The position numbers were made by a program, and so were the translations under genes. A DNA stretch of 33,781 nucleotides from Thermoplasmatales archaeon (GTDB lineage: Archaea > Thermoplasmatota > E2 > DHVEG-1), in assembly GCA_020343515.1 (NCBI GenBank), contig CP070798.1, positions 270,085-303,865 on the forward strand, given 5' to 3'. Every line of letters starts with the position of its first letter. Within the stretch, counting starts at the first letter, position 1. Below, piece after piece: positions 2,504 through 24,217 of this stretch. The notes beneath the pieces were generated by a model. It was not told the origin of the DNA. It saw nothing but the letters and a program-made list of their open reading frames with translations, and ran no database searches.

Positions 2504-2564
2504 CTTATAAGCATATTTGTAATATTATGTTTATATATATTTTGTCTTTATCGAGTTCTCCAAT

Positions 2565-4484: not shown

Positions 4485-4611
4485 GTATTTAATCCCCCAA
4501 TTATAATTTTATAAGATGGTTATGGATAGCTATTAGCTATTAATATTTGCTGTTTGGTACCTCCAATAAAGAATATTGCCGAAAGACACGTGTCTCATCC
4601 TTAGGAGCATA

Positions 4612-5469
4612 TTAGTGTGGTATGTTAGTGGATTTCAGCTCTCCATGAACATCACCGTTTGTTAAATCGATATCGAGCTTGATTAGGTTTCCAATAGATG
4701 GGGCATAATAGTATTCAAAGTAATCACTAATTATTGTTGATATCTTCCATGCATCAAAGGTCCCTGCTTCAACAGTAATACTTTGTTTATTCCAGCACCA
4801 AAACGCAAATGGTATCCCTGAATAATGAGTTTGAAATGTTATAGGAATCTTGATAAGGCCAAAGATTCCGCCGAATTGTGCGTTCATCTCTACATTTATA
4901 TCTGGTAATGCCCAAGATTTCAGTGCATGTAAAGGAAAATCAAAGAGAGGAAAAACAGTACTCAAATCCCCATCTACAGTCAATTTAAACGGAATTGGAA
5001 GTGGTATAGGGATTGGTGAAATCGTTGCTACAGTAATACCTATTATATTAGCGGAAACATCTTCGATTTCTAAACCAGATTTGGTAAAATAAATAGTTCC
5101 AGTTAAATGTGTTAACGACGGTTTAAAGTTGCCCATTACATTTAATGTTACAGGTGACGAAGTATAAATTTCATACTCTGCAGAGAGGTTACCGGTAAAA
5201 TCTACCCTATAGGTATCCCCGGTTGTGTCTTTTACCGTCCATTTTAAATCATCAATTCTTCCATCAATAAATATCTTTTTACCAGTTTTACTAATATTTA
5301 TAGTAAAATCATTTATTGTATACGTCCAACTGTCATCGATATTCCAAGTAGGAACATCATCATTAATAGTTATTTTCTCTCTTGGCATCGGTTGAGTGGG
5401 CTCAGCAACAGCTACAACACTCAGCATCATTATAATACAAAAAATTATCCCTGTAGTTTTACTTATCAT
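4612..5469 (-). CDS. Small exported protein of unknown function (possibly DUF3108-like)
   Basis: A 285-residue protein with a clear signal peptide (about 1-22, ending AVAEP), then a beta-rich, soluble mature part with no further membrane segment. The mature protein opens with PTWNIDDSWTYTI and near its end has VEAGTFDAWKIS followed by YYYAPSIGNLIKLD. The latter pattern resembles DUF3108-type proteins, in which a Gly-x-Phe-x-x-x-Lys-Ile strand precedes a Tyr/Trp-Tyr strand; this is a weak resemblance from memory, not a firm assignment. It has no catalytic motif, PKD domain or FPILR-type tail. The ribosome site is GGGGG at 5476-5480, six bases before the ATG. It is transcribed toward the two peptidase genes, with a 127-base gap to the next one. 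A role as a surface or periplasm-like binding protein is only a guess. Confidence 0.8.
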   Translation of the reverse strand: MISKTTGIIFCIIMMLSVVAVAEPTQPMPREKITINDDVPTWNIDDSWTYTINDFTINISKTGKKIFIDGRIDDLKWTVKDTTGDTYRVDFTGNLSAEYEIYTSSPVTLNVMGNFKPSLTHLTGTIYFTKSGLEIEDVSANIIGITVATISPIPIPLPIPFKLTVDGDLSTVFPLFDFPLHALKSWALPDINVEMNAQFGGIFGLIKIPITFQTHYSGIPFAFWCWNKQSITVEAGTFDAWKISTIISDYFEYYYAPSIGNLIKLDIDLTNGDVHGELKSTNIPH

Positions 5470-5636
5470 ATATTTCCCCCATGTTATATTAATTATAAAA
5501 ATGTATATTTAAATCTATCGAAAGTTTAATCTTGAGAGGTGTAATGAAAATAAGTTTCTAGTAATTTTTTAGAAAGATAATAGTATATTTTCGTAACAAA
5601 ACAAATACTCCCATTGATGTAATTATAGAAGAAACG

Positions 5637-5685
5637 TTTAAATAAAAATACTGCATTATAATATATAGCATTTATATTTGGGAGG
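5637..5685 (+). promoter_or_regulatory. Promoter and ribosome site of the large C25 peptidase gene
   Basis: TATA-like TTTAAATAAA at 5637-5646 should place the transcription start near 5668. GGGAGG at 5680-5685 is an excellent Shine-Dalgarno six bases before the ATG at 5692. The 222-base divergent spacer also serves the minus-strand gene starting at 5469. Confidence 0.5.
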
Positions 5686-5691
5686 AAAAAT

Positions 5692-8310
5692 ATGAACAAG
5701 AGAATAATGGGTATTTTTATCTGCACGCTTTTGATTGCTACCGCTGCTTTACCAGCGGCAGGGACCGGGAAAATTATTGAATTAAATAAAATAAATAACA
5801 TCTCTAGGAAATCGTTAATGGAGTCTATCGTTGTAACGCTGAATGTAGGGGAATATGAAATTAATGACTATGGCATGGGTAATTCTGAAATAAATATGGC
5901 TGGTTTTGGTTCCATTCTTTATCCGGGGGAGCCTATGCTTCCATCTAAAACATTTTATGTTGGAATGCCGCCTGGTTGTGAAGTGATTTCAGTCGATTTG
6001 CTAAACGAAAATTGTGAAGAGGTGGCTGGAAGATATCATATCAGATCGGCTCCACCAGTTTTTGGTGGTGAAAACACTAAAGTCAATGGGAAAGAAAATT
6101 TAGTTATATGCCCATCAGAAGGTCCGTTCCCAGCAAAGGTATATGAATACATTGGTATGAGCCAGATGAGAAAATATTATCTTGCAATGATACGTTTTTC
6201 ACCGTTTTCGTATTATCCATCTGAAGGAAAACTGGTGTTGCATAACAGTATTACTTTGCGTATAAGCTTTAGGATTGTTGAAGAAGTTTCTGACGAGTTG
6301 TTAGCAGATGCGGCGATGGATGATGTTGCTTCAGAGTGCATCGTAAACTATGCAGAAATTGCTCATTTATACCAGCCTACATCTGTTCCACCAATGGAAC
6401 AAACATATGACTATGTGATCATTACAACAAGTTCTCTGGTTGGCTCTCTATCTGGTTTTCAAACTTGGAAAACAAGTTTAGGTTATTCTGTGACCATTAA
6501 AACATTATCCTGGATTACGACACAATATCCAGCTAGCGATACACAGGAAAGTATCAGGAATTTTCTTGTTGCAAATTATGCATCCTGGGGGATTAAATAT
6601 GTTTTGATTGTTGGAAGTCATTCAACTGTTCCAATGAGAACGTGTTATCCTGACCCCAATGATCATAATAATGATGGTCAGCATGACATTCCAAATGATT
6701 ATTACTATGCTGATCTCACTGGTAACTGGGATAGTGATGGTGACGGATTTTATGGTGAACGAGGACAGGATAGCGTTGACTTTAATCCCGAGGTATGGGT
6801 AGGGAGAATACCAGTAGATACTGGAACAACGGTTACAAATATATGTACAAAGATTCAGAACTTTGAACAAACCGCTTATATGGGTTGGAAGAAAAACGCG
6901 ATGTTGCTCGGTGCAGTCTATAGTTACCTTAATGAAGACTATTCCGGCAATCCAAGATGGGATGGAGCTGAAGTTCAGGAGCAAGTAAGGACTAATCTCC
7001 TCGCGGGTTTTTCTTGTACAACAATGTATGAAAAAGCTGGACTTGCTCCATGTTCCTATACTTGTACATATTCATTGACCAATGCAAATATTATAACACA
7101 GTGGGGTAGCACCACTGGCTGGGGCATTGTGAACTGGGCAGCACATGGCTGGTATACCTCTGCTAGTAGAAAGATATGGTCCTCGGATGATAGTGACAAC
7201 GTCCCAGAAACAGCTGAAATGACATGGCCGATTATGATTCAAAACACGGATTCCACCTCCTTTAATGACAATAAACCTCCTATTGTCTTTGCAGCTAGTT
7301 GCTACGTTGAGCGTCCCGAGACATCGAATAACCTCGGTGCATCGCTATTGATACAAGGAGCATCTGCATTTGCTGGAGCTACACGAGTCTCATGGGGTAG
7401 CATGGGATGGACACAACCTTCTCATGGGGGACATGGTACTATAAGCTATGATTTCGTTGACAGGATTGCAAATGGCGGTCAAGATTGCGGTACGGCCTTG
7501 TACGATGCCAAGTTGTATGTTTATAATAATTATCCGTGGAACGGCTGGTGGGATTATGCCAACATGTATGATTTCAACCTATATGGAGATCCCTCCATGG
7601 GCATGAATCTCCAACCTAATACACCTTCTCAACCATCTGGACCTACCTCAGGTTTAGCTGGAAAGTCTTATACATATACAACCAGTACTACCGATCCTAC
7701 GAGCGACATGGTAAAATATGGTTGGGACTGGGATGGAGACAACACAGTTGATGAATGGGATGACAACGGTGGTAATTATTATACCTCTGGAACAACAATT
7801 TCCACAAGCCATGCATGGGGATCCACTGGTACGTTTAATGTTAAAGTAAAGGCCGAGGATTTGTATGGTGGACAAAGCGCTTTCTCGCCTCATTTGACAG
7901 TTGTTATCACCACTACTGCGCCAAACAAACCAGCCACACCCTCAGGAGAAACACGAGGTAAAATCGGAACACCGTACCCCTATTCCACAATGACAAATGA
8001 TCCTGATAGTGATAAGGTAAAGTATGGTTGGGATTGGGATGGAGATAACACAGTTGATGAATGGGATGACAACGGTGGAAATTTTTATGCCTCTGGAACA
8101 ACAATTACTACTTACCACTCATGGGATACCAAAGGTACGTATGATGTGAAGGTAAAGGCACAAGATCTTTACGGCGGTGAAAGCGTCTGGTCAGATCCAT
8201 TAGAAGTGACAATGCCGAAAAACAATCTATTCATCAACACGTGGTTCCCATGGTTTTGGCAATGGTTTCCAAGGATCTTTCCAATCATCAGAAATCTATT
8301 TGGACTATAA
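5692..8310 (+). CDS. Secreted C25 (gingipain-like) peptidase with two PKD domains and C-terminal tail motif
   Basis: Exported cysteine endopeptidase, 872 residues. Signal peptide about 1-23 (ending LPAAG); prodomain about 40-200 with the PGEPMLPSKTF segment typical of C25 propeptides; C25 domain about 235-635. Likely catalytic residues are H485 in NWAAHGWY and C537 in FAASCYVE; the domain closes with NLYGDPSMG. Two PKD domains follow (about 645-740 and 745-842), almost identical in their cores (YGWDWDGDNTVDEWDDNGGN) and separated by exactly 102 residues. The last 30 residues begin after EVTMPK and end FPRIFPIIRNLFGL, matching the tails of the M14 and beta-helix proteins. It is a paralogue of the 639-residue C25 protein on the other strand, with extra cell-surface modules. 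Extracellular protein breakdown is the expected role; retention at the surface through the tail is inferred. Confidence 0.93.
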   Translation: MNKRIMGIFICTLLIATAALPAAGTGKIIELNKINNISRKSLMESIVVTLNVGEYEINDYGMGNSEINMAGFGSILYPGEPMLPSKTFYVGMPPGCEVISVDLLNENCEEVAGRYHIRSAPPVFGGENTKVNGKENLVICPSEGPFPAKVYEYIGMSQMRKYYLAMIRFSPFSYYPSEGKLVLHNSITLRISFRIVEEVSDELLADAAMDDVASECIVNYAEIAHLYQPTSVPPMEQTYDYVIITTSSLVGSLSGFQTWKTSLGYSVTIKTLSWITTQYPASDTQESIRNFLVANYASWGIKYVLIVGSHSTVPMRTCYPDPNDHNNDGQHDIPNDYYYADLTGNWDSDGDGFYGERGQDSVDFNPEVWVGRIPVDTGTTVTNICTKIQNFEQTAYMGWKKNAMLLGAVYSYLNEDYSGNPRWDGAEVQEQVRTNLLAGFSCTTMYEKAGLAPCSYTCTYSLTNANIITQWGSTTGWGIVNWAAHGWYTSASRKIWSSDDSDNVPETAEMTWPIMIQNTDSTSFNDNKPPIVFAASCYVERPETSNNLGASLLIQGASAFAGATRVSWGSMGWTQPSHGGHGTISYDFVDRIANGGQDCGTALYDAKLYVYNNYPWNGWWDYANMYDFNLYGDPSMGMNLQPNTPSQPSGPTSGLAGKSYTYTTSTTDPTSDMVKYGWDWDGDNTVDEWDDNGGNYYTSGTTISTSHAWGSTGTFNVKVKAEDLYGGQSAFSPHLTVVITTTAPNKPATPSGETRGKIGTPYPYSTMTNDPDSDKVKYGWDWDGDNTVDEWDDNGGNFYASGTTITTYHSWDTKGTYDVKVKAQDLYGGESVWSDPLEVTMPKNNLFINTWFPWFWQWFPRIFPIIRNLFGL
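7721..8078 (+). repeat. Near-identical intragenic PKD duplication (306-base period)
   Basis: The 52-base segment at 7721-7772 recurs at 8027-8078 with two differences by eye (C/T in each case). The offset is 306 bases, exactly 102 codons, one PKD module. Flanking parts of the two modules are much more diverged, which suggests recent conversion or strong constraint on the calcium-binding-like loop DWDGDNTVDEWDDNGG. Confidence 0.85.
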
Positions 8311-10194: not shown

Positions 10195-10656
10195 TTAAAA
10201 CTGGAATTCTTTATTAAAAATTTTAAAAAGAATAAATTCTCTAACCGCATCCATGTCTGAATCTAGATAAATGGCTCCAATCAAAGCTTCTAATGAATTA
10301 GCAAGGTTCGTGCGGTTTTTTGCCCCATCTTGTTTGATCTCGCCTTTTCCAAGTAGTAGGAAGTTGCCAATACCCAATTTCCTAGCGATGTTAGCTAAAA
10401 AATTATTATTTACCCCAATTGATCGCCTACGGGTAAGTTCACCTTCTGAAAAATATTTATTACTCTTATAAAGTTGCTCGGCTACAATAAAATTTAGGAT
10501 GCTGTCACCCAAAAATTCTAAACGTTCGTTGTATTCAAGAGGAATGTCGGCTTCAAAAGCATATGTTTTGTGGGTTAGAGCCTCTTCTAGCAACCCCTTA
10601 TCTTTAAATTTGTAACCTACTTTTTCCTCAAGCACATTGAAATTATCTTTTTTCAT
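10195..10656 (-). CDS. rnc: Ribonuclease III, catalytic domain only
   Basis: Double-strand-specific endoribonuclease. From the ATG at 10656 the product is 153 residues, about the length of the catalytic domain alone (bacterial enzymes are about 220-250), with no double-stranded-RNA-binding domain. The signature ERLEFLGDS is at 44-52, giving E44, E47 and D51 of the metal site; E123 in LANSLEALIGA matches the essential Glu of E. coli E117. The position of E. coli D114 is Asn (N120). The ATG start leaves eight residues before the LEEKVGYKF helix, as in the E. coli enzyme; a TTG at 10674 would add six residues. It lies 39 bases downstream of the radical SAM gene, so probably co-transcribed. RNase III is uncommon in archaea. 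Possible roles are rRNA processing or antisense-RNA turnover. Confidence 0.9.
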   Translation of the reverse strand: MKKDNFNVLEEKVGYKFKDKGLLEEALTHKTYAFEADIPLEYNERLEFLGDSILNFIVAEQLYKSNKYFSEGELTRRRSIGVNNNFLANIARKLGIGNFLLLGKGEIKQDGAKNRTNLANSLEALIGAIYLDSDMDAVREFILFKIFNKEFQF

Positions 10657-10695
10657 AAGAAAATAGGAATACAATAACCCTAAATTAATGTATCA

Positions 10696-12408
10696 CTAAA
10701 AATTGATATAGTCCAATAATTTTCTACCGATTTCAGGGTCATCAAGCGATTTAATTATTTGCTCTTTGTTCCGAAAAGGCCTGTTTGATAAGATTCTAGT
10801 GGCCCTTTTTTTACCAATACCCGGAAGTGCTACAAGGGTTTCCCTAGGTGCTGTGTTTATATCTAAAGGAAAGGGTATTGCTGTTACAGATCTATAGCCG
10901 TAATCTATCATTTTTACATCAAAAAATCTATGTAAAGTAAAAACACCAGGAATGCCTACCAGCAAGGGATAGCTACCGATTTGCCTACCAAAAGTTAATT
11001 TACCTTTATGGATTTCTGTAAAAACATTTTTAAGAATAGTTCCTAGTGGCAAAATTTTTTTGAGCATGGGTCGCTCTATATTCTCACGGACCTTTCTTTT
11101 AAAGCGTTGAAACTCGGTTTTATGTCTCTTAACATTTTTAATGCCAAACTTGAACATCATTGTACCAGGAATTGGTATAACCTGACGGAGATTGATTCTT
11201 CTCACAAGAAGGCCGCTATCATATATCTGCATTAAAAAATCGTAATTTAATGCAAAGGTGTTTTTTGTTTCACCTTTGAGTCCACAAACAAAATTCAAAC
11301 CTGGCAATAATTCTGGTAAACCATTGGCTCCTCTCTTTGAACCAACGTTATTCAAAAGCTTTATTGCAGATAGAACTTCATCAGGGGATGCCTTGAGATT
11401 GTTATGATTAATAACTGCAGGGTCGACACTTTCCACTCCAAAAGCTGCAACATCGCCAGGAGTGTGATACTTAATAATACTTTTTGCAATACGCTTGCAT
11501 TCCTTAGGATATCGAGCAATGATTCCAGGATTTGCATTGTCGATATGCAAGGTTTTTAAACCGGGAGCCTTGGAACGGATTCCTTTAAACAACTTCTCAA
11601 TCGCAGCAGGATTTGGCTTCGGAAATTCTTGCTCATCTGCACCTTTTGCCATATACGAAAAAATACATGGTTGATTTCCAACTCGAAAATTTCGAATTCC
11701 TGCAGTGTAAAGCATACCAACTTCATCAAGAATATCTTCAACAGCTCGAAAACTAGGGATGCCTTTACTCGGTTCGCTGCAAAAAGAGCAGCCACCAACT
11801 ATGCTCCTTGGGCAGCCTCGATATGTTTCCATCTCTGCAATTAAATAATCAGGAAAAAAAGGATGTTGCCGGACTATCTGTGAACCCTGTACGGCGAAAT
11901 TTTTAATATCTCCAGGACTGGTTCTACACAGAAACGAGTTCGTTATCTCAGTATCACAGTTATTGCTTAATAGCTCTGATATAACGATTTCTCCATCGCC
12001 TTCTGCTATCATATCAAAAACGTCTTCAACAACTTGGGTATCTCTCGCCTTCTTGCCACCGGACAGACCAAAACCGTATCGTGCACCTGGGCCACTTAAG
12101 ACCTTGATAGGATTGTTTATGATGCCTAGAAGAGATACAAGCTCATTGGGACTTACTGGAAAACCAGAAAAATATTTTCCAGGGACAGACAAACCAGCAA
12201 TTACGATAAGTAAATCAGATTTAGACAGAATCTTCAGGAGAGACCTGTCGCTACGAATTTGATCTATGGTGCAATAAAAAACATGGGCATGTTTATCGTA
12301 AGACCAGACAGCGCCAGCTATATAACGAGGATACGGGCTGATATAAGGTGGAACACCAAGGCAAGTAGGCTCATCAATGTAACCATCGAGTATTGAAACA
12401 TTTAACAT
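10696..12408 (-). CDS. COG1031-type radical SAM protein with C-terminal helix-hairpin-helix
   Basis: A 570-residue iron-sulfur enzyme expected to cleave S-adenosylmethionine; substrate unknown. The N-terminal part (about 1-185) resembles a B12-binding-like or Rossmann region without an obvious cobalamin motif. The cluster cysteines are C199, C207 and C210 in ETYRGCPRSIVGGCSFCSE, a C-x7-C-x2-C spacing rather than the usual C-x3-C-x2-C, as I recall for the archaeal COG1031 family. Residues about 510-560 hold a helix-hairpin-helix (INTAPRETLVALPGIGKKRA), normally a DNA or RNA backbone-binding element. A TATA-like element at 12433-12442 is centred about 30 bases before the ATG, suggesting leaderless transcription. 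The following gene is RNase III, hinting at a nucleic-acid substrate such as tRNA or rRNA; that is inference. Confidence 0.9.
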   Translation of the reverse strand: MLNVSILDGYIDEPTCLGVPPYISPYPRYIAGAVWSYDKHAHVFYCTIDQIRSDRSLLKILSKSDLLIVIAGLSVPGKYFSGFPVSPNELVSLLGIINNPIKVLSGPGARYGFGLSGGKKARDTQVVEDVFDMIAEGDGEIVISELLSNNCDTEITNSFLCRTSPGDIKNFAVQGSQIVRQHPFFPDYLIAEMETYRGCPRSIVGGCSFCSEPSKGIPSFRAVEDILDEVGMLYTAGIRNFRVGNQPCIFSYMAKGADEQEFPKPNPAAIEKLFKGIRSKAPGLKTLHIDNANPGIIARYPKECKRIAKSIIKYHTPGDVAAFGVESVDPAVINHNNLKASPDEVLSAIKLLNNVGSKRGANGLPELLPGLNFVCGLKGETKNTFALNYDFLMQIYDSGLLVRRINLRQVIPIPGTMMFKFGIKNVKRHKTEFQRFKRKVRENIERPMLKKILPLGTILKNVFTEIHKGKLTFGRQIGSYPLLVGIPGVFTLHRFFDVKMIDYGYRSVTAIPFPLDINTAPRETLVALPGIGKKRATRILSNRPFRNKEQIIKSLDDPEIGRKLLDYINF

Positions 12409-12481: not shown

Positions 12482-13765
12482 CTATTCTAGTCCCAGCATC
12501 TGTCTCAAGATCGGAAACATCCAAGGATACCGTTCAAACAACCAACTAAGTAGGTTAAAATTGAAATTGATGGCTTTGTTTTTTGGCATCGTAACTTCTA
12601 GTGTTCCCCAGTCGCTTTCCCCATCTTTGTCCATGGCTTTTGCTTTAATGGTATAGGTTCCTTCCTCATACCACGTATGGTGTACATTGAATGGTATGCC
12701 TGATGCAATTGGCCCAAGCCAGTCAGTAAAATTACCATCACTCCAGTTTATTATTACCCATATAGCATCACCATCAAATTCTGTTACTGTAATTGTATAG
12801 GATAAGTTGACTCCAACTTTACCATGAGTTGGACCATTAATAACTGGTGCATTTGGTGGTTGATTTTCATATTCCCATGGCTCCATCAATGGATACTTGT
12901 CCTCATTATCACCACCAGGAATAGCATATGGCGTATCGCCAATGCCATCACCATCCCCATCTGTCCCATTATAATCACTCCAGTAGTTGCCACCAGAGGG
13001 ATATTCATCGTCCCATTTATTACTTGGACCTCCTCGTTCAAAGACTTGGTTTTCTCCATTATTAACAAAGTTATTATGATGAATTTTATTGAACTCTCCT
13101 CCACCCTCGCACATATCTAACATTATACCTACCTCATCGTTTGATATAACATTGTTTGAAACAATTTGATTATAAGCAGACATGATCATGTAAATTCCTC
13201 TGTTATTACCTGATATATTATTGTGAGTAATGATGTTCTTGTTATGATGATCCCAACCGGTATGTTCAAAATGGATACCATCATTTGTATTAGAGGTTAT
13301 ATTATTGTATCGAATGATGTTGTTTTCGCTATTTTCTTTACCATTGTATTGTGTTCGAAACATCACACCATTACGGTTCCCAGTGATAATAGTATCTTCT
13401 ATAACCCCATTTGATACATTGAGAAACACTACTCCATCATTGTTTATTCCACCATCATGAACGTAACAGTTAATAATTGTAAAGTACACACTTGCGTTCA
13501 AGATAGTTATGCCATCCTGGAAAGAGACATTTATCCTCCAGTTTTCTATAGTATAGGGATCATTGGATATGCCTGAACCTCCAGTTACGCCGTTTTCGCT
13601 GGTGAAATCATCATTTCCATTTATGTAAATCGGGTCATGTGGTGTATATGTGGGAGTGACATATGATTTTTCTACTGTGGTGCCAGTTGATGGAATAACA
13701 CTCATCCCAAGGAACAATACTATTATGACAATCGCAATTCCATTCTTAGGCAATGTTTTTCGCAT
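12482..13765 (-). CDS. Secreted NosD-like beta-helix protein with PKD domain and C-terminal tail motif
   Basis: Exported 427-residue protein. Signal peptide about 1-28; right-handed parallel beta-helix about 75-250 made of Asn-rich rungs (NNIIRYNNITSNTNDGI, NQIVSNNVISNDEVGI); a NosD-type block at 251-293 with YPSGGNYWSDY and a Ca-binding-like DGDGDGIGD; a PKD domain about 303-395; then a tail ending YPWMFPILRQMLGLE. The fold is typical of carbohydrate-binding or carbohydrate-cleaving proteins, but no catalytic site is evident. The tail matches the M14 and large C25 proteins, with one extra Glu at the end. GGGAGG at 13771-13776 precedes the ATG and a TATA-like element is at about 13805-13814 on the minus strand. 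It is transcribed divergently from the RAM/transporter operon. Confidence 0.92.
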   Translation of the reverse strand: MRKTLPKNGIAIVIIVLFLGMSVIPSTGTTVEKSYVTPTYTPHDPIYINGNDDFTSENGVTGGSGISNDPYTIENWRINVSFQDGITILNASVYFTIINCYVHDGGINNDGVVFLNVSNGVIEDTIITGNRNGVMFRTQYNGKENSENNIIRYNNITSNTNDGIHFEHTGWDHHNKNIITHNNISGNNRGIYMIMSAYNQIVSNNVISNDEVGIMLDMCEGGGEFNKIHHNNFVNNGENQVFERGGPSNKWDDEYPSGGNYWSDYNGTDGDGDGIGDTPYAIPGGDNEDKYPLMEPWEYENQPPNAPVINGPTHGKVGVNLSYTITVTEFDGDAIWVIINWSDGNFTDWLGPIASGIPFNVHHTWYEEGTYTIKAKAMDKDGESDWGTLEVTMPKNKAINFNFNLLSWLFERYPWMFPILRQMLGLE

Positions 13766-13996: not shown

Positions 13997-14051
13997 CTTT
14001 AAATAGATAAATTTATAATTGGAACTGGTATACGGCGTAAGAATTGGGTGA
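13997..14051 (+). promoter_or_regulatory. Promoter and ribosome site of the RAM/transporter operon
   Basis: TATA-like CTTTAAATAG at 13997-14006 predicts a start near 14027. GGGTGA at 14046-14051 is the ribosome site for the ATG at 14056 and rules against the in-frame TTG at 14044. Confidence 0.45.
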
Positions 14052-14055
14052 AAAT

Positions 14056-14295
14056 ATGATAAACGCATACATACTATTAACCATGCGGACTGGCGATTCT
14101 GGGAAAGCTATTTTAGAAATGAGAAAAATAGAGAATGTAGAAAAAATCTCTGTGGTTGCAGGAGAGTACGATATTGTCGTGAGAGTACAAGTGAAGACCT
14201 TGGAAAGTCTTTTAAAAGTTACCAATAAAATTCAAATGATAGATGGTGTGAAAAAAACAACTACGTCAGTCATAGAGAAAGAAATCGCATTATGA
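14056..14295 (+). CDS. Stand-alone Lrp/AsnC ligand-binding (RAM) domain protein
   Basis: A 79-residue protein consisting only of the RAM fold (beta-alpha-beta-beta-alpha-beta) of Lrp/AsnC regulators, without the DNA-binding helix-turn-helix. Landmarks are the first strand INAYILLTM, helix GKAILEMRKIENV, the central VVAGEYDIVVRV hairpin (the Gly-x-Tyr-Asp that lines the amino-acid pocket) and the last strand KKTTTSVIEKE. Such proteins assemble into rings and bind amino acids between subunits. The stop codon overlaps the next ATG (ATGA), so it is translationally coupled to a transporter that carries the same domain at its C terminus. It may co-assemble with that domain as a soluble partner or competitor; this is inference. 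Confidence 0.9.
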   Translation: MINAYILLTMRTGDSGKAILEMRKIENVEKISVVAGEYDIVVRVQVKTLESLLKVTNKIQMIDGVKKTTTSVIEKEIAL

Positions 14296-15533
14296 TAATT
14301 AGAAAAAAATATCTTTTTTATGCATTAGCATTTGCATCTTCAATTATTGCTGCATCAGTTTCAGCTATAGATGCTACTATTAGTCAAATTTACATACCTA
14401 ATCCATGGGCATTTAGTTTTTCATGTTTTATTGTGGGCATAATTATTTCGCTGCTTATTGTCCTAGTTTTTTCTATACCAGTAAAAGGGAGAAGTCTTGG
14501 ATCTAGAGTTATTGATCCGTCGTTCAAACGACTACGATTAGTGAGAAAAGAGGAGCTGAAATATCACATACCTGCAGCTGTTGGAAATGCTATTCTAACT
14601 ATTGGCTATCTCTCACTCCTTTCAATTCTAGGAGATCCTTCCACCGTGCTTCCCTTTTCACAAATTGTTATTTTATATTTGATACTTATAGAATCAATTA
14701 CTGAAAAAAATATGCCAACACTATCAGAAATCCAATCTTCTATTATTGTTACATTCGGTGCAATTCTTGGGTCAATTTCATTAACTGGAACTATTAATCT
14801 TGCGTCACTTGCAATCGTATTTTTAGTGGTAAACCCAGCTTGGGTTCTTTTTTCCATTAATCAAAGAAAGTTAAAAATACTCAAAGTTGACAATAGACCA
14901 AACGATGCACTAAATATACGATTTTGGAATGTTGTATTCGCGTGTTTATTTACCGCGATACTAGCAATCATATACGATTTTATTGTGGGCGGTAATAATT
15001 TCATAGAAGGAATCGCAGCATCCATTAACCACTTTAGTTGGGTTGCATTAACTATGGGAGTTACTTTTTTCTCATATGTATTCTATATTCGCGCTTTAGG
15101 AATTGGAAAAGCGAGTGTCACCCAAGCAGTACGAGCATCAACAGTTCTCTTTGCCATTCCATTTTCAATATTGATATCATATTTCAACGTCATACCACCT
15201 TTTACGACAGACCCTGTAATGATTTTAATAAAAATTATTGGAACAATTCTAGTGATTCTTGGCATTGTCTCATTTGCACTTGCTTTAGTCAAAGCATACG
15301 TTTTCATCAACATTAAACCAGGTTATTCCATTGAGGAAACGATGGACAAACTATGGACCATTTGGGGTGTAACTCGAGTAACCGCAATTGCAGGTAAATA
15401 TGATTTCATCGTCAAGATACGGACGCGTACGCTGGTTAAGGGCTATGAACAAATCATTCAAAAACTAGAAGAAATCGACGCAATAAAAGACTACAAATGG
15501 CAATCCGTTCTCAAGGAATGGGAAAAGATCTAA
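14292..15533 (+). CDS. DMT/EamA-like membrane transporter fused to a C-terminal RAM (AsnC ligand-binding) domain
   Basis: A 413-residue fusion. Residues 1-335 hold about ten hydrophobic segments (approximately 8-28, 41-62, 93-113, 118-136, 149-167, 170-190, 209-231, 247-267, 283-300, 308-334), the layout of drug/metabolite-superfamily (EamA-like) carriers. Residues about 334-413 are a RAM domain: KAYVFINIKPG, then TAIAGKYDFIVKIRTRTLV and the closing KDYKWQSVLKEW strand, directly similar to the stand-alone RAM protein encoded just upstream (both contain AGxYDxxV). This predicts a carrier gated or assembled by amino-acid binding on the cytoplasmic side. Substrate is unknown; amino-acid import or export is the obvious candidate. 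Start codon overlaps the preceding stop. The M29 aminopeptidase follows after 54 bases. The EamA label is from topology and general look, so the exact family is less certain than the fusion. Confidence 0.88.
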   Translation: MIIRKKYLFYALAFASSIIAASVSAIDATISQIYIPNPWAFSFSCFIVGIIISLLIVLVFSIPVKGRSLGSRVIDPSFKRLRLVRKEELKYHIPAAVGNAILTIGYLSLLSILGDPSTVLPFSQIVILYLILIESITEKNMPTLSEIQSSIIVTFGAILGSISLTGTINLASLAIVFLVVNPAWVLFSINQRKLKILKVDNRPNDALNIRFWNVVFACLFTAILAIIYDFIVGGNNFIEGIAASINHFSWVALTMGVTFFSYVFYIRALGIGKASVTQAVRASTVLFAIPFSILISYFNVIPPFTTDPVMILIKIIGTILVILGIVSFALALVKAYVFINIKPGYSIEETMDKLWTIWGVTRVTAIAGKYDFIVKIRTRTLVKGYEQIIQKLEEIDAIKDYKWQSVLKEWEKI

Positions 15534-15587: not shown

Positions 15588-16694
15588 ATGATGGACAAAA
15601 GATTGGAAAAACTGGCACATATTTTGGTGCATCATTCTCTTAAAATTGAGAAGAATGATCTGTTTATGATTAGCGGGAGCCCTATTACAGCACCTTTGAT
15701 AACGGAAATATATAAACAGGCGTTAAAAGCTGGTGCTAATCCACATGTGAGGTTAGGCATTGAGGGGCTAGCTGAGATATTCTACAAGAAGGCAACCGAG
15801 AAACAACTCAAATATATGTCCCCCCTTGCAAAATTCGAAATTGAAAACATCGACGCTCGGCTTGGCATTATAAGTCCAGAAAATACTAGGGGTATGACAA
15901 ATGTTGACCCGAAAAAACAAGCAATGAGTAGTGTTGCTAATAGAGAGATACATCAGATATTTCTTGATAGAGCTGCCAAGAAAGAGCTGCGTTGGTGCAT
16001 CACTCAATACCCAACCAATGCCGCTGCTCAAGATGCCGAAATGTCCCTGGAAGAGTATGAAGATTTTATATTCAAAGCAGCTCATGTGGGAAAAAAAGAT
16101 CCAATCGGCCATTGGAAACAAGTTTTCAAAGAACAGGAGAAAATTAGAAGGTTGCTGGAGTCAAAGAAAAAATTGCATGTTATAGCAAAAGACACTGATC
16201 TAACAGTCTCTGTTGCTGATAGAAAATGGATAAACTGCTATGGGAAAGAGAATTTTCCTGATGGCGAAGTATTTACAGGGCCCATAGAAAATTCAGCAGA
16301 AGGCAATATTAGCTATTCCTTCCCTGCATCTCATGGCGGCAGAGAGGTGGATGACATACAGCTCTGGTTTAAGAAGGGCAGGGTTGTTAGGGCAAAGGCA
16401 TCTAAGGGTGTGAAATTCCTAAATTCTATGCTTGATATGGATAAAGGATCACGAAGGATTGGAGAATTTTCCTTTGGCACGAATTATGGCATTAAAAAGT
16501 ATACAAAAAACACTTTATTCGATGAGAAAATCGGAGGCACTATCCATATCGCAGTTGGTAGCGGATATCCTGAAACAGGGAGTAAGAACAAATCAAGCCT
16601 GCATTGGGACATGATGTGTGATTTACGTAAAAATGGCGAAGTCTATGCTAATGACGAGCTCATTTATAAAAACGGTAAGTTTTTGAATATATAA
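15588..16694 (+). CDS. M29 family metallo-aminopeptidase
   Basis: Cytoplasmic, two-metal aminopeptidase of the AmpS/aminopeptidase T family, 368 residues against about 370-410 for the family. Metal-site motifs are all present: E227 in NFPDGEVFTGP, E293 in IGEFSFGTN, H320 in GGTIHIAVG, and H339 and D341 in SSLHWDMMCDLR. No signal peptide. It removes N-terminal residues from peptides. The start is one of two adjacent ATG codons at 15588 and 15591. Its position 54 bases after the RAM-fused transporter, on the same strand, suggests a peptide/amino-acid handling operon in a region otherwise rich in exported peptidases. Confidence 0.94.
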   Translation: MMDKRLEKLAHILVHHSLKIEKNDLFMISGSPITAPLITEIYKQALKAGANPHVRLGIEGLAEIFYKKATEKQLKYMSPLAKFEIENIDARLGIISPENTRGMTNVDPKKQAMSSVANREIHQIFLDRAAKKELRWCITQYPTNAAAQDAEMSLEEYEDFIFKAAHVGKKDPIGHWKQVFKEQEKIRRLLESKKKLHVIAKDTDLTVSVADRKWINCYGKENFPDGEVFTGPIENSAEGNISYSFPASHGGREVDDIQLWFKKGRVVRAKASKGVKFLNSMLDMDKGSRRIGEFSFGTNYGIKKYTKNTLFDEKIGGTIHIAVGSGYPETGSKNKSSLHWDMMCDLRKNGEVYANDELIYKNGKFLNI

Positions 16695-16802: not shown

Positions 16803-18602
16803 ATGAAGGATAATTACAAAATTAAAAACTTGTTAAAAGCAGTTATAGTTATAACAATCGCATCTGCATTTATGATGCCTGGTTCAGCGACTTTTTTCAA
16901 TGTAGAAAAAGAATATTTGGAAAAAAATATGGCTTCCTCAGGGATGCCCGGCATAATATATGTAGATGATGACAACACAGATGGCCCCTGGGATGGAAGC
17001 ATAGATTACCCTTATCAATTTATACAGGATGGAATTGATAATGCACTTAATGGTAACAGAGTCTATGTTTTTAACGGAACCTATTACGAAAATATCGTTA
17101 TTTTCATATCCATATTCTTGGAAGGCGAAGATAAGGACAGTACCATTATCAATGGTGAAGGGCAAGGAACTGTGGTTAAAATCACAACTGATCTAGTAAC
17201 CCTAACCGGGTTCACCATAAAAAACAGTGGCAGCAGTCCAAATAATGCTGGCATTTCCGTTAACTCTGAATGGAACCTTATTAAAGTAAATAATTTTGTA
17301 GACAACAACTACGGCACTCGATTGGTAAAATCAAATAATACAATATTATACAACAATTTCATGAATAACAACCAACATGCCTATGACGAATGCAGCAATA
17401 CATGGAATGATTCTTCTCCAGGTGGAGGCAACTTTTGGGATGGCCACATTGGTGAAGACGATAATGAAGACGGTATTATTGATGCACCATATGATATAAC
17501 GGGCCATAGCAACAAGGATTGGCGTCCATTACTCCACATTTATGGCTCAGTTATAAATCTAGATACACAGGACGTCTTTCTAACAATTAAAAGCGCGATA
17601 AATGATTATGGTACCTATGATGGACATACAATTTATGTTAAAAACGATGTATACTATGAACATTTAGTTATCGACAAAACAATAAATCTGATTGGTGAAA
17701 ATAAGGAAAAAACTATAATTGATGCGCGAGGATTTGGTAACGTAGTAAAAATCTATTATGACCAGGTAGCTTTTTCTGGTTTCACCGTTCAACATAGTGG
17801 AAGTGAGCTACATAACGCAGGAATGGTAGTGGATTCGGATGAAAATAACATAACCGAAAATATACTGGAATATAACTATCATGGAATCATTCTATGTTCA
17901 TCTGATGATAACGTTATCTTGGGAAACATTATTCAAAATAACGATTGGAATGGAATCTATATAAAACATTACTGTAATAGAAATACCATTTTAGAAAATA
18001 CCATTGAAAACAACAATTATGCAGGTATCGCCATAACTGGTTCTTCCCAAAACGAGGCGTACCATAACAATTTCATAGGGAATAGACATAACGCATATGA
18101 TGATTCTAACAATATATGGGATGATGGCTATCCCTCGGGTGGGAACTACTGGGATGATTATGCAGGGAAGGATTGTGACGGCGATGGAATAGGAGATAAA
18201 CCATATATAATTCCTGATGGAATAAACAAAGATAGATATCCTCTAATGGAACCTTACATCAGTACCGACACAATTCCACCCTACGTAGAAATCATTTCAC
18301 CACAGAACGGATTATATATTATGAACCTTAGGCTGCTACATCGTATAATCAGACAAAGAACAATAATTTTTGGACGCATTACTATAGAAGTTGAGGCATC
18401 AGACTATCAATCCGGAATTGAAGGGGTTGCTTTCTACCTAGATAACAATCATAATCCAGAAGAAACAGATTATATTGAACCATATAGCTGGACTTGGACT
18501 AGAAAGTCCTTCTTAAAACACTGGCATGTCGTTAGAGCTGTTGCGATTGACAGGGCTGGAAACTACAACAGCGATGCAATATTAGTTCGAAAGTATTTTT
18601 AA
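16803..18602 (+). CDS. Secreted NosD-like double beta-helix protein with C-terminal Ig-like domain
   Basis: Exported 599-residue protein. Signal peptide about 1-29; an entry segment IIYVDDDNTDGPWDGS (51-66); first beta-helix about 67-200 closed by a NosD-type block (SSPGGGNFWDG ... DDNEDGIIDAPYDI, 204-232); second helix about 250-440 closed by a better NosD block (YPSGGNYWDDY ... DCDGDGIGDKPYIIP, 443-472). The two halves repeat the same order (TIYVKNDVYYEHLVID matches RVYVFNGTYYENIVIF), so the gene arose by internal duplication. Residues about 490-599 form an Ig-like domain starting PPYVEIISPQNGLY and ending in KYF. It has no PKD domain and no FPILR-type tail, unlike the beta-helix protein at 12482. 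A carbohydrate-related surface role is likely but unproven. Confidence 0.9.
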   Translation: MKDNYKIKNLLKAVIVITIASAFMMPGSATFFNVEKEYLEKNMASSGMPGIIYVDDDNTDGPWDGSIDYPYQFIQDGIDNALNGNRVYVFNGTYYENIVIFISIFLEGEDKDSTIINGEGQGTVVKITTDLVTLTGFTIKNSGSSPNNAGISVNSEWNLIKVNNFVDNNYGTRLVKSNNTILYNNFMNNNQHAYDECSNTWNDSSPGGGNFWDGHIGEDDNEDGIIDAPYDITGHSNKDWRPLLHIYGSVINLDTQDVFLTIKSAINDYGTYDGHTIYVKNDVYYEHLVIDKTINLIGENKEKTIIDARGFGNVVKIYYDQVAFSGFTVQHSGSELHNAGMVVDSDENNITENILEYNYHGIILCSSDDNVILGNIIQNNDWNGIYIKHYCNRNTILENTIENNNYAGIAITGSSQNEAYHNNFIGNRHNAYDDSNNIWDDGYPSGGNYWDDYAGKDCDGDGIGDKPYIIPDGINKDRYPLMEPYISTDTIPPYVEIISPQNGLYIMNLRLLHRIIRQRTIIFGRITIEVEASDYQSGIEGVAFYLDNNHNPEETDYIEPYSWTWTRKSFLKHWHVVRAVAIDRAGNYNSDAILVRKYF

Positions 18603-20511: not shown

Positions 20512-20641
20512 AAAAAACCAATTTTTTCCTTGTTGAAAAAATTTACAGCAATAGAAAAAAAAGATAAACTAATAAATTGTTCCGGAATAAAACAAGATTT
20601 AAAATGAAATAGATATTACTTTGTACTGTGGAAGGAGAGCT

Positions 20642-22351
20642 ATGGAGGTATCCACTTTAGATACTGCTGAGAAGGCAAGTAAAGCACCCGCGCTCAATGG
20701 AAAGCCGAAAATTGCCTATTTCTCCATGGAAATTGGGTTAGACAAACAGATACCTACTTATAGCGGCGGGCTTGGTATTTTAGCTGGTGACACCTTAAAA
20801 TCATGTGCAGATCTAAATGTCCCAATTGTAGGAATTACACTGCTTTCCGAAAATGGATATTTTTATCAAAAAATTGACGAGGAGGGAAATCAGATTGAAC
20901 TCCCAATTAATTTTAATATCAATGATTTTCTTACGTTGCTTCCAAGCAAAACAAATGTGATGATTGAAGATAGAGCAGTAAGCATTCGTATCTGGCATTA
21001 CCTAGTTAAAGGAATAAGCGGATATATAGTTCCAGTTTTTTTTCTGGACACGAATCTTGAAGAAAACAATGAATCGGACAGAGAGATTACGAAATATCTA
21101 TATGGCGGTGATGAAAAATATCGTCTTGCTCAAGAAATTGTTCTTGGCATTGGCGGGGTTAGGGCAATTCGCTCGCTTGGCTATAAAACAATTGATAAGT
21201 ACCATATGAACGAAGGTCACGCTGCTCTCGGCACCCTTGAACTTTTTCGAGAATTAAAAAATATTGAAAAAGTCAGAGAACAATGTGTATTTACAACGCA
21301 CACTCCAGTTGCTGCAGGTCATGATCAATTTGATTTATCTTTTGCGCAACCTATGTTGGGAGATATGTTACCTGATCCTGTTCTTGATAACGTTACGTTT
21401 GAAAACAAATTAAATATGACTAGACTAGCCCTTTTTTTTAGTCACTACGTTAATGGTGTTGCAAAAAAGCACGGCGAAGTCTCACGATCAATGTTTCCCG
21501 GTTACTCTATAGATTCCATTACAAACGGTGTTCATACACCTACTTGGGTTTCGGAACCATTTCAAAGATTATTTGATAAACATATGACAGGTTGGCGTTC
21601 TGATCCCTACATACTTAGAGCCACGTTTAGCATCGAGAAGCGTGAGGTATGGGCTGCCCACATGGAGGCAAAAAAGACTCTCATAGATTTTGTCAACAAC
21701 AGATACAAAGTCGGTATGAACTATGATCATTTCACTATAGGATTTGCTAGGCGACAAACCGCATACAAAAGACCTGATCTGTTGATTTCTGATCCAGAAA
21801 GACTTAAGCATATTGCTGAAAAAACAGGACCTATCCAGATCATATATGCTGGAAAAGCGCATCCCAAAGATGGATCAGGTAAAGAAACTATCAAAAAAAT
21901 TTTTGATTCTATGAAGGCAATAAATGGGAAAATAAAAATTGCCTATATCCACAATTACGATATGACGATTGGAAAAATGATGACTTCGGGTGTGGATCTC
22001 TGGCTGAATACACCTCGAAGACCGAGAGAGGCTTCAGGAACCTCCGGGATGAAAGCTGCCCATAACGGAGTCCCACAGTTCAGTACGTTAGATGGTTGGT
22101 GGCTGGAAGGATGTGTCGAAAACATAACAGGATGGGCAATAGGACCAGAAAAGACAGAAGAGGAAGAATCTGATGATGAAATCGATAGAAATGATCTTTA
22201 TAACAAACTTGAAAATTGGATAATGCCAAAATTTTACAATGACAGAGATAATTGGATAAGAACTATGAGAAGTTGCATAGCAATAAACGCGTCATTCTTT
22301 AATACAAACAGAATGATTCAACAATACGTTCTAAACGCCTATTTTATGTAG
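20642..22351 (+). CDS. Alpha-glucan (maltodextrin/glycogen) phosphorylase, short form
   Basis: GT35 enzyme releasing glucose 1-phosphate from alpha-1,4-glucan with phosphate; PLP-dependent. From the ATG at 20642 (AGGAG at 20633-20637) the product is 569 residues, much shorter than the about 800-residue classical enzymes and closer to the archaeal/thermophile type. Landmarks are IAYFSMEIGL near the N terminus, PTYSGGLGILAGD, HMNEGHAALG, FTTHTPVAAGHDQF, and the PLP site REASGTSGMKAAHNG with K471. An upstream TTG at 20621 is unlikely. The 3' end overlaps the convergent debranching-enzyme gene by 21 bases. Together with the GT4/GH57/debranching operon it forms a glucan storage and mobilisation locus. 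Confidence 0.94.
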   Translation: MEVSTLDTAEKASKAPALNGKPKIAYFSMEIGLDKQIPTYSGGLGILAGDTLKSCADLNVPIVGITLLSENGYFYQKIDEEGNQIELPINFNINDFLTLLPSKTNVMIEDRAVSIRIWHYLVKGISGYIVPVFFLDTNLEENNESDREITKYLYGGDEKYRLAQEIVLGIGGVRAIRSLGYKTIDKYHMNEGHAALGTLELFRELKNIEKVREQCVFTTHTPVAAGHDQFDLSFAQPMLGDMLPDPVLDNVTFENKLNMTRLALFFSHYVNGVAKKHGEVSRSMFPGYSIDSITNGVHTPTWVSEPFQRLFDKHMTGWRSDPYILRATFSIEKREVWAAHMEAKKTLIDFVNNRYKVGMNYDHFTIGFARRQTAYKRPDLLISDPERLKHIAEKTGPIQIIYAGKAHPKDGSGKETIKKIFDSMKAINGKIKIAYIHNYDMTIGKMMTSGVDLWLNTPRRPREASGTSGMKAAHNGVPQFSTLDGWWLEGCVENITGWAIGPEKTEEEESDDEIDRNDLYNKLENWIMPKFYNDRDNWIRTMRSCIAINASFFNTNRMIQQYVLNAYFM

Positions 22352-24193
22352 TAAAATATTCTCATATTTTGGAGATATGTTCTCAATATCCTCTATCCAC
22401 GAGCGAAGTATTTCTGCTACACTCCATGCCTGTGTTATACATCCCCGTGGAAGGTGAGGGGGATCTCCATCAAATATTTCACATATAGAACCGTCCCAAT
22501 TATCGCCAAAAGCGTCAAACATTGGTTTTAAAAAATTCTGAAATGCAAATTCTCTCCATGCCAACTCATGATTCTTTGTTTTAACGAACGCTTTGATAAA
22601 TGGCCCCATAAGCCAAGGCCATACCGTACCATTATGATAAGCGATATCTCTGTTATAATCACCAAGATATGTTCCTTTGTATCTTGGATCATCTGAAGAT
22701 AAAGTTCGTAACCCAAAGATAGTAAGCAAATTTTTTTGAACATCATTAACTATCTTTTCTTGCAACCCTTTATCTACCACAGAAAAATCAAGAGAAACAA
22801 GAAAGATTTGATTAGGTCTAAATGACAAATCTTTGGCATCAATAACATCGTATTGCTTTTCAAACTGTTTATTAAAACTTTTTTTTACTTTTTCTGCTAG
22901 GTCAGAATATGTGTCTTCCTTATTCAATATGTTTGCTAGATTGCCCATTATTCTAAGTGCATTGTACCATAAAGCTTGAATTTCAACTGCCTCTTTTGAA
23001 CGAGGCGTAGGATAGTAATCTCCAATTTTTACATCCATCCAAGTAAGCCCCTCCGCATGACTTATTAGAAAATCATCGTCCATGTGAATATCGTTCTCAG
23101 TTCCATTTTTGTAGCTATCAATAATAGAATGTAATATTCTCCATACCTCTTCGAGAAAGTTTAGATCATTTGTATATTTCAGATATTGGTATACTCTATC
23201 TACAAACCACAATGAAGCATCTACTGTATTATATACTGCTTTGGCATCTCGATCCATAAATGCATTTGGAAGTAGGCCGTTTTTACAGTACTCGCCAAAA
23301 CTTAAAAGCGTTTGTTTTGCATCATCAAACCTCTTTGTAACAAGTGCAATTCCGGGTAGTGATATCAGCGCGTCCCTGCTCCAATCGCCAAACCAATGAT
23401 AACCGGCTACAATCGATTTTTTAATACCTTTTTTTACAACAAAATTATCAGTTGACAAAACAAGTTTTTCAAACTTACTTGGAAGATCTGCTCGTTCAAG
23501 TAATCTCTTTTTCCTTTGAATCTCATGCAAATAAATTTCTGAAGGGTTACTATCTACATTATTTTCGAGTGTAAAAATCAGGTAATATTCACTAAAACTC
23601 TTGATAGTTTTATGAAGTTCACCAATATGAACACTATTATCTATCCAAGAATCGTTTCTTTCGCGATCCTTTTTATAATGAAATTCCGCCCAGTAATTTG
23701 CTGGTTTATAGATAGAATCTCTAAGTATAATTTTAAGTGTTTTATCTATGTTGCTTGGTTTTATACGAACACCATGTTCAAAAAAGTCCTGTTTGAATGA
23801 TATAGATCCTTGTTCAGTTGTATCATAAAAATGTCTGGAATTTATGACAGGACTATGAATAACTGATATTGGTTTGTCTGTTTTAATTTCATATTTAACA
23901 GATGTAGTATTTTTTTGATACTCCATAAAAATCGTTTTTTTGAGTTTTACTCCTTCCATATCATAAAGAAGTGAGGGAAATACATCAAAAACAAATCTAC
24001 CTTTGTAGTCTCTTAAATCATGAACTTTATTTTCAAAAGTGATTCTATCGTATACATTTGATACAAACATCCATCTTCTCGTCGGCGGGGTCAAACTTGC
24101 AACCAATAAACCGTGGAACTTTCTGATATTATCGTTAGAATGAGTTAAAGAAGCGTAGCTTCCAAGACCGTTCGTAACTATCCATTCTCTCAT
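22331..24193 (-). CDS. Glycogen debranching enzyme (amylo-alpha-1,6-glucosidase type)
   Basis: A 620-residue archaeal/bacterial-type debranching enzyme. The N-terminal domain opens with EWIVTNGLGSYASLTHS and RKFHGLLVAS, typical of the family; the C-terminal (alpha/alpha)6 barrel (about 250-610) has GYHWFGDWSRDALISLPG at 264-281 with acidic residues of the active site, TWMDVK near 384-389, YHNGTVWPWLMGPF at 519-532 and ITQAWSVAEILR near the end. It trims alpha-1,6 branches of glycogen-like polymers. It is the third gene of the GT4-GH57-debranching operon, 24 bases after the GH57 gene, and overlaps the convergent phosphorylase gene tail to tail. No truncation seen. Confidence 0.94.
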   Translation of the reverse strand: MREWIVTNGLGSYASLTHSNDNIRKFHGLLVASLTPPTRRWMFVSNVYDRITFENKVHDLRDYKGRFVFDVFPSLLYDMEGVKLKKTIFMEYQKNTTSVKYEIKTDKPISVIHSPVINSRHFYDTTEQGSISFKQDFFEHGVRIKPSNIDKTLKIILRDSIYKPANYWAEFHYKKDRERNDSWIDNSVHIGELHKTIKSFSEYYLIFTLENNVDSNPSEIYLHEIQRKKRLLERADLPSKFEKLVLSTDNFVVKKGIKKSIVAGYHWFGDWSRDALISLPGIALVTKRFDDAKQTLLSFGEYCKNGLLPNAFMDRDAKAVYNTVDASLWFVDRVYQYLKYTNDLNFLEEVWRILHSIIDSYKNGTENDIHMDDDFLISHAEGLTWMDVKIGDYYPTPRSKEAVEIQALWYNALRIMGNLANILNKEDTYSDLAEKVKKSFNKQFEKQYDVIDAKDLSFRPNQIFLVSLDFSVVDKGLQEKIVNDVQKNLLTIFGLRTLSSDDPRYKGTYLGDYNRDIAYHNGTVWPWLMGPFIKAFVKTKNHELAWREFAFQNFLKPMFDAFGDNWDGSICEIFDGDPPHLPRGCITQAWSVAEILRSWIEDIENISPKYENILLHKIGV

Positions 24194-24217
24194 AATCCAC
24201 TATGTGTCCTCACTATA

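What the first reader, a model, noticed from the sequence alone, without database searches (positions are those of the whole stretch)
14056..15533. Membrane carrier with a built-in amino-acid-sensing RAM domain, translationally coupled to a free RAM domain
The 413-residue protein joins a ten-segment DMT-like carrier to a complete Lrp/AsnC ligand-binding domain, and its ATG overlaps the stop of a gene encoding the same domain alone. RAM domains form dimers and octamer rings with amino acids bound at subunit interfaces. A carrier ending in one could oligomerise or be gated by its own substrate, and the soluble copy could mix into the ring. I know RAM domains in transcription factors and as stand-alone proteins; use as a transporter regulatory domain is unusual. 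The aminopeptidase next door fits amino-acid handling.
Basis: partly seen in the sequence, partly recalled or inferred. Interest (0 to 1): 0.72.

Follow-up and report, generated by a model that had tools for sequence, protein, structure and literature searches.

The report
Transporter paired with amino-acid sensor domains
In a group of mostly uncultured Thermoplasmatota archaea, a membrane transporter carries on its inner face a relative of the amino-acid sensor domain of Lrp-type gene regulators, and is almost always encoded right after a small soluble copy of that domain, which suggests (not yet shown) that cell amino-acid levels control the transporter directly rather than through gene expression.

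Summary
A 79-aa stand-alone RAM protein (14056-14295) overlaps by ATGA a 413-aa protein (14292-15533): ten membrane helices plus a RAM domain. AlphaFold2/Foldseek place the membrane part in the DMT superfamily (LicB, SLC35B1, TPT, YddG) and the tail with RAM proteins. It is no frameshift or assembly error: fusion orthologues occur in 70 of 390 sampled Thermoplasmatota genomes, down to 43% identity, RAM always attached where the gene is intact; dN/dS about 0.05-0.27. The free RAM gene directly precedes the fusion in 62 of 63 distinct loci, with the same 4-base overlap in 51, while other neighbours change. New here: the two RAMs are complementary, not copies. The free RAM keeps every canonical amino-acid-pocket residue (V34, G36, D39, T68, T70); the fused RAM keeps G/D but replaces the crucial Thr pair by Tyr/Phe and Trp (W403 in 55/56). 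The one copy without a partner gene has also lost Gly and Trp. Best reading: the free RAM docks on the cytoplasmic RAM of the carrier and gates it by cytosolic amino acid, as GlnK gates AmtB. Anatomy near certain; docking and gating inferred; substrate unknown (elsewhere neighbours are MTAP-like phosphorylase or PurF).

The parts
13998..14005 (+). TATA-box-like TTTAAATA upstream of the gene pair (putative promoter)
   Evidence: Read directly from sequence; consensus resemblance only, not tested
14046..14051 (+). Shine-Dalgarno-like GGGTGA before the free RAM ATG at 14056
   Evidence: Read directly from sequence; supports ATG 14056 over the upstream TTG 14044 listed mechanically
14056..14295 (+). 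Free (stand-alone) RAM protein, 79 aa; complete canonical amino-acid pocket V34, G36, D39, T68, T70
   Evidence: PF01037 E 3.1e-12; orthologue upstream of 62/63 fusions; G36, D39, T68, T70 invariant in 54/54
14292..14295 (+). ATGA start/stop overlap (probable translational coupling)
   Evidence: same -4 overlap in 50 of 61 plus L062
14292..15533 (+). DMT-superfamily carrier with C-terminal RAM, 413 aa
14292..15284 (+). Membrane domain, residues 1-331, ten helices, N-in/C-in
   Evidence: AF2 helices, DMT folds by Foldseek, positive-inside count
15285..15530 (+). Fused cytoplasmic RAM, residues 332-413, starting directly after TM10; G368/D371 kept, Thr pair replaced by Y401/W403; lineage-specific R379, G384, Y385, W410
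   Evidence: single group apart from free RAMs
15588..16694 (+). M29 aminopeptidase, downstream neighbour (context only; not conserved beyond f1/f2)
   Evidence: PF02073 E 2.8e-94; distribution

Best explanation
A two-gene unit encodes a DMT-superfamily carrier whose activity is controlled from the cytoplasm by RAM domains. The 79-aa soluble RAM is the amino-acid sensor; the RAM welded to the end of TM10 is a specialised docking/effector domain that has lost half of the canonical ligand site. Soluble and fused RAMs assemble (dimer or ring), possibly sharing ligand sites built from the G/D half of one chain and the Thr pair of the free RAM, and the amino-acid-dependent assembly acts on TM10 and so opens or closes the carrier. 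Translational coupling keeps the soluble and membrane partners co-produced. Shown: both genes, domains, fold, topology, conservation, linkage and residue asymmetry. Inferred: physical docking, ligand binding, gating, direction of control, substrate.
For: PF01037 in both proteins and in 55/56 fusion orthologues. DMT fold. RAM cytoplasmic and fused without a linker to TM10 (helix ends 331, first strand 333). Linkage 62/63 loci with -4 overlap in 51, over several families in more than one class while outer neighbours change. Purifying selection on all three segments (dN/dS mostly 0.05-0.15). Complementary residues: pocket V/G/D/T/T defined in Grp and Ah-BarR, the Thr pair being predicted crucial in the whole family (PMC10201364); free RAM has all, fused RAM lacks the Thr pair (W at the second position in 55/56); six stand-alone paralogues of the same genome keep T-x-T. 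The one fusion without an adjacent RAM gene (L082) is also the one that lost W403 and G368. Mixing precedent: FL11 with stand-alone RAM DM1 as hetero-octamer (PMC2995911). Precedent for fused regulatory domains on transporters: MetNI, ModABC (PMC10710835).
Against: No direct evidence of interaction: the read-through concatenation model had lower pTM (0.67 vs 0.77) and no contact data were available. The conserved overlap could reflect stoichiometry or expression only. The residue comparison for the fused RAM rests on 20-30% identity alignments, though the W position is flanked by conserved columns and agrees with the PDB alignment. L082 is a single divergent paralogue. The substrate is unknown and neighbours disagree.
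Confidence: 0.5

Rival explanations
1. Transceptor / sequestration: the carrier's RAM is mainly a membrane anchor for the soluble RAM. The free RAM shuttles, releasing from the membrane according to transport or amino-acid state and mixing with other RAM or Lrp-type proteins in the cytosol, so the carrier signals nutrient state (as AmtB sequesters GlnK).
For: Same linkage and complementarity data; the genome has ten PF01037 matches, several stand-alone, that the free RAM could mix with; hetero-octamers known (PMC2995911).
Against: No classical HTH-Lrp partner was identified among the PF01037 loci inspected; nothing shows shuttling. Not separable from the gating model by sequence.
Confidence: 0.17
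2. The fused RAM is only an oligomerisation module for the carrier and the free RAM is an independent cytosolic protein; the overlap merely sets expression.
For: RAM domains are oligomerisation domains (PMC2995911); fused RAM lost the canonical Thr pair; some DMT proteins work as oligomers (own knowledge).
Against: Persistent 62/63 linkage while all other neighbours change; fused RAM is as conserved as the carrier (mean column identity 0.70 vs 0.65) with the G/D half of the pocket kept in 55/56.
Confidence: 0.2
3. The fused RAM binds a different, probably aromatic or purine-like ligand (Y/F-x-W in the pocket) and acts alone by trans-inhibition; the free RAM senses a second signal.
For: Thr pair replaced by strongly conserved aromatics; MTAP-like phosphorylase or PurF next door in many genomes.
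Against: Neighbours are not conserved; the Trp may simply fill the pocket or form an interface.
Confidence: 0.11
4. Frameshift, chimeric assembly or annotation artefact.
For: None found.
Against: 63 distinct loci, single-contig genomes, purifying selection.
Confidence: 0.01

Closest known systems
DMT superfamily (EamA PF00892, LicB, SLC35B1, TPT, YddG)
   Same: Ten-helix fold, N-in/C-in; EamA hits in 10/56 orthologues; top 30 Foldseek PDB hits
   Different: C-terminal cytoplasmic RAM with no linker; own conserved cytoplasmic loops (e.g. NDxxNIRxWN, residues 204-213); window protein below EamA detection
Stand-alone RAM proteins (P. horikoshii DM1 2e1a/2z4p, STS042, TvDM)
   Same: Free RAM has the length, profile match (2cvi_A E 2.2e-6, 2zbc_A) and all canonical pocket residues
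   Different: Genetically tied to a carrier; the physiological role of stand-alone RAM proteins was described as unclear (PMC2995911)
Lrp/AsnC transcription factors, including PA2577 that represses the EamA gene PA2576
   Same: RAM domain linked to a DMT carrier
   Different: The known link is transcriptional through an HTH; here there is no HTH and the RAM sits on the carrier itself (PMC8707732)
GlnK-AmtB (from own knowledge)
   Same: Small soluble ferredoxin-fold sensor encoded immediately upstream of its transporter, conserved gene pair, soluble partner acts on the cytoplasmic face
   Different: Unrelated families; AmtB has no fused copy of the sensor fold; regulation here unproven
MetNI C2 and ModC C-terminal domains (trans-inhibition)
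   Same: Cytoplasmic ligand-binding domain fused to a transporter, ligand at a domain interface (PMC10710835)
   Different: ABC importers, no separate soluble copy; the review's text contains no mention of RAM domain, AsnC or DMT

Membership tests
DMT superfamily carrier | Ten-TM fold with DMT topology | tested here: met
   AF2 ten helices; 30 best Foldseek PDB hits all DMT, E 1e-5 to 8e-4; N-in/C-in
DMT superfamily carrier | Sequence match to EamA PF00892 | tested here: inconclusive
   10/56 orthologues, best 1.9e-7; window protein itself not matched at E<=0.1
DMT superfamily carrier | 5+5 internal sequence repeat | tested here: inconclusive
   hhalign of the two halves gave probability 0.3%; the repeat is not visible in sequence, only implied by fold matches
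DMT superfamily carrier | Transport activity | not testable with these tools
   Needs an assay
RAM (AsnC_trans_reg) domain, free protein | PF01037 match above cut-off | tested here: met
   46.6 bits vs 25
RAM domain, free protein | Amino-acid pocket V/G/D + T-x-T | tested here: met
   V34, G36, D39, T68, T70; G/D/T/T invariant 54/54
RAM domain, fused | PF01037 match and RAM fold | tested here: met
   27.5 bits vs 25; 55/56 orthologues; Foldseek DM1 TMt 0.86, rmsd 1.5
RAM domain, fused | Canonical Thr pair of the ligand pocket | tested here: not met
   Y/F at 401 (51/56), W at 403 (55/56)
RAM domain | Dimer/octamer assembly, amino-acid binding | not testable with these tools
   No multimer prediction available; concatenation model inconclusive
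Lrp/AsnC transcription factor | N-terminal HTH | tested here: not met
   No HTH in either protein

The most novel reading that the evidence does not exclude
A GlnK-AmtB-like control unit built from RAM domains: a soluble amino-acid-sensing RAM completes a split ligand site with a degenerate RAM on a DMT carrier, giving direct amino-acid gating (and possibly membrane-sequestration signalling) and a physiological role for a stand-alone RAM protein.
Probability: 0.35. Interest if true: 0.85.

Novelty: new variant of a known kind. Interest (0 to 1): 0.62.

Why it matters
It would move the RAM domain from transcription factors to direct control of a carrier, give stand-alone RAM proteins (role described as unclear in PMC2995911) a testable function, and add a DMT example to the 'plug-on' regulatory domains on transporters. 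Because the pair is small, linked and conserved, co-purification and ligand screens are directly feasible. It lies in archaea whose window encodes secreted-type C25 and M14 peptidases, as described for protein-degrading sediment archaea (MBG-D/Thermoprofundales, PMC6461988), where control of amino-acid or related flux matters.

Tried and rejected
Artefact/frameshift: rejected. M29 linkage as evidence of an amino-acid substrate: not conserved. Hetero-assembly by AF2: the first mixed alignment (A3) was misaligned and not used; then stop codons between the genes were read through, as a modelling device only, in loci where both genes are in frame (A4); pTM 0.67, no contacts returned, inconclusive. 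Internal repeat of the carrier by hhalign: none visible. Origin of the fused RAM from the adjacent free RAM: the tree separates all fused RAMs in one 100/100 group with a long branch, too few columns to say more. Rfam on the window: nothing. Literature for EamA + AsnC + RAM domain: no paper in the library holds all three terms. Search outside the phylum: only one degenerate-peptide scan of 84,980 species, which found Thermoplasmatota only and is sensitive to close relatives only.

Full report
Observation. The window lies on a single-contig 1.92 Mb Thermoplasmatota genome (G000:C1:270085-303865; phylum from relatives). ORF 14056-14295 (+) encodes 79 aa and ORF 14292-15533 (+) encodes 413 aa, overlapping as ATGA. 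Pfam gives AsnC_trans_reg in both (E 3.1e-12 and 3e-6). The 79-aa gene has a GGGTGA motif 4 bases before its ATG and a TATA-like TTTAAATA about 50 bases further up; these are consensus resemblances only.

What the large protein is. Among 56 aligned orthologues, 55 match PF01037 and 10 match EamA (best 1.9e-7), although the window protein itself does not match EamA. AlphaFold2 on that alignment gives ten membrane helices followed directly by a beta-alpha-beta-beta-alpha-beta domain (pLDDT 84.8, pTM 0.77). Foldseek against the PDB lists only DMT-superfamily entries in the first 30 (SLC35B1, triose-phosphate translocator, LicB, Vrg4, CMP-sialic acid transporter, YddG), then RAM proteins (DM1 2e1a: TM-score 0.86 over the target, rmsd 1.5). 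Loops on the N-terminal side hold 34 Lys/Arg, those on the other side none, so N-terminus and RAM are cytoplasmic.

Not an artefact. By my count of strong matches (E < 1e-20), the fusion occurs in 49 of 60 relatives and in 70 of 390 genomes drawn from the phylum: families f1, f2, f5, f7, f10, f11 of the same class and f17 and f27 outside it, down to 43-44% identity. Every intact match covers residues from 1-3 to 412-413, that is, including the RAM; no carrier of this group without RAM was seen. The rest of the sampled phylum shows only weak matches to other RAM proteins. A peptide-pattern scan of 84,980 species returned Thermoplasmatota only, but that method finds close relatives only. Pairwise dN/dS for membrane part, fused RAM and free RAM is mostly 0.05-0.15 (up to 0.27).

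The gene pair. After removing duplicates, 63 distinct loci remain. The free RAM gene lies directly upstream in 61 by the first filter, 50 of them with the -4 overlap and the others at +4 to +24; L062 was missed by the filter and also has it with -4 (stop at 2928, fusion ATG 2925), giving 62 of 63 and 51. Outer neighbours change: M29 aminopeptidase and/or PurF downstream in f1 and partly f2, an MTAP-like phosphorylase overlapping or abutting the fusion in f7 and f10 (best NCBIfam model TIGR01694, E about 1e-73 but below its cut-off), JAB in f17, CBS in f27. The pair is the unit; the aminopeptidase is not part of it.

Two different RAMs. Free and fused RAM of one locus are on average 29% identical; all fused RAMs form one group with 100/100 support. 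In Ah-BarR and Grp the ligand pocket is V99, G101, D104, T134, T136 (Ah-BarR numbering), the Thr pair being predicted crucial throughout the family and shown by mutation to lower the response (PMC10201364). The phmmer alignment to ST1022, with Thr132/Thr134 placed by the mutant entries (2pmh Thr132Ala, 2efq Thr134Ala), puts these at T68/T70 of the free RAM and Y401/W403 of the fused RAM. Free RAM: G36, D39, T68, T70 invariant in 54/54. Fused RAM: G368 55/56, D371 55/56, position 401 Tyr or Phe in 51/56, position 403 Trp in 55/56; R379, G384, Y385, W410 invariant. Six other stand-alone RAMs of the same genome keep T-K-T. The only fusion lacking an adjacent RAM gene, the second copy in G026 (L082), reads V-K-F in place of Y-K-W and has lost G368. 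This is one case, but it is what a dependence of the fused site on the partner would predict.

Mechanism. Shown: architecture, topology, linkage, conservation, residue asymmetry. Inferred: the free RAM is the amino-acid sensor and docks on the fused RAM; RAM pockets are formed by elements from separate dimers (PMC2995911), so a mixed assembly could place the Thr pair of the free RAM against the G/D half of the fused one; ligand-dependent assembly acts on TM10, to which the RAM is joined without linker. Mixed RAM octamers are documented for FL11 and DM1 (PMC2995911). Whether ligand activates or inhibits, and whether the carrier imports or exports, is open. The carrier could move amino acids, but the MTAP-like and PurF neighbours would equally suit methionine-salvage or purine-related compounds.

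Comparison. It works like GlnK-AmtB (own knowledge) and like trans-inhibited MetNI/ModABC (PMC10710835), but belongs to neither. It is a member of the DMT superfamily by fold and of the RAM family by profile; the fused domain fails the canonical ligand-residue test. Regulation of an EamA gene by an Lrp protein is known at transcription level (PA2577/PA2576; PMC8707732); no paper in the library contains EamA, AsnC and RAM domain together.

Limits. No multimer modelling or coordinates; the read-through concatenation model was inconclusive. No domain-architecture database outside the phylum. Loci are related by descent, so 62/63 is not 63 independent events. Assignment to MBG-D/Thermoprofundales is a guess from C25/M14/PKD proteins in the window and the description in PMC6461988, not from a marker gene.

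Noticed in passing
L069:5437-6201, L063:2133-2894, L058:4195-4989 and others: In families f7/f10 an MTAP-like phosphorylase ORF overlaps or abuts the fusion gene; it scores below the NCBIfam MTAP cut-off, so its exact substrate is open.
   Followed up: partly
L082:322-1587 (G026:C35): Second, partnerless copy of the fusion: no RAM gene upstream, G368 and W403 lost, long branch; a natural contrast to the coupled copies.
   Followed up: partly
L086 (G237:C12:36594-38346): Fusion gene broken into pieces with in-frame TAG codons and extra sequence between residues 173 and 197: decaying copy or assembly problem.
   Followed up: no
L104:1474-2001 (G000:C1 about 69 kb): 175-aa tryptophan-rich protein with an N-terminal RAM domain and an unassigned second half.
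   Followed up: no
10195-10674 (-): RNase III-like protein (PF14622 E 1.2e-32) in an archaeon, conserved next to the radical SAM gene in relatives.
   Followed up: no
10696-12408 (-): Radical SAM protein with C-terminal helix-hairpin-helix motif, conserved neighbour in several f1 genomes.
   Followed up: no
146-8310: Secreted-type peptidases: M14 carboxypeptidase with PKD (-), two C25 gingipain-type peptidases (- and +).
   Followed up: no
12482-13765 (-) and 16803-18602 (+): NosD/beta-helix proteins with Ig/PKD-like domains flank the pair; the downstream one is variably present between relatives.
   Followed up: no
20621-26511: Glycogen/alpha-glucan cluster: phosphorylase, debranching enzyme, GH57, glycosyltransferase.
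   Followed up: no
29175-31040 (+): 621-aa protein without any Pfam match at E<=1e-4 between two glycosyltransferase genes.
   Followed up: no
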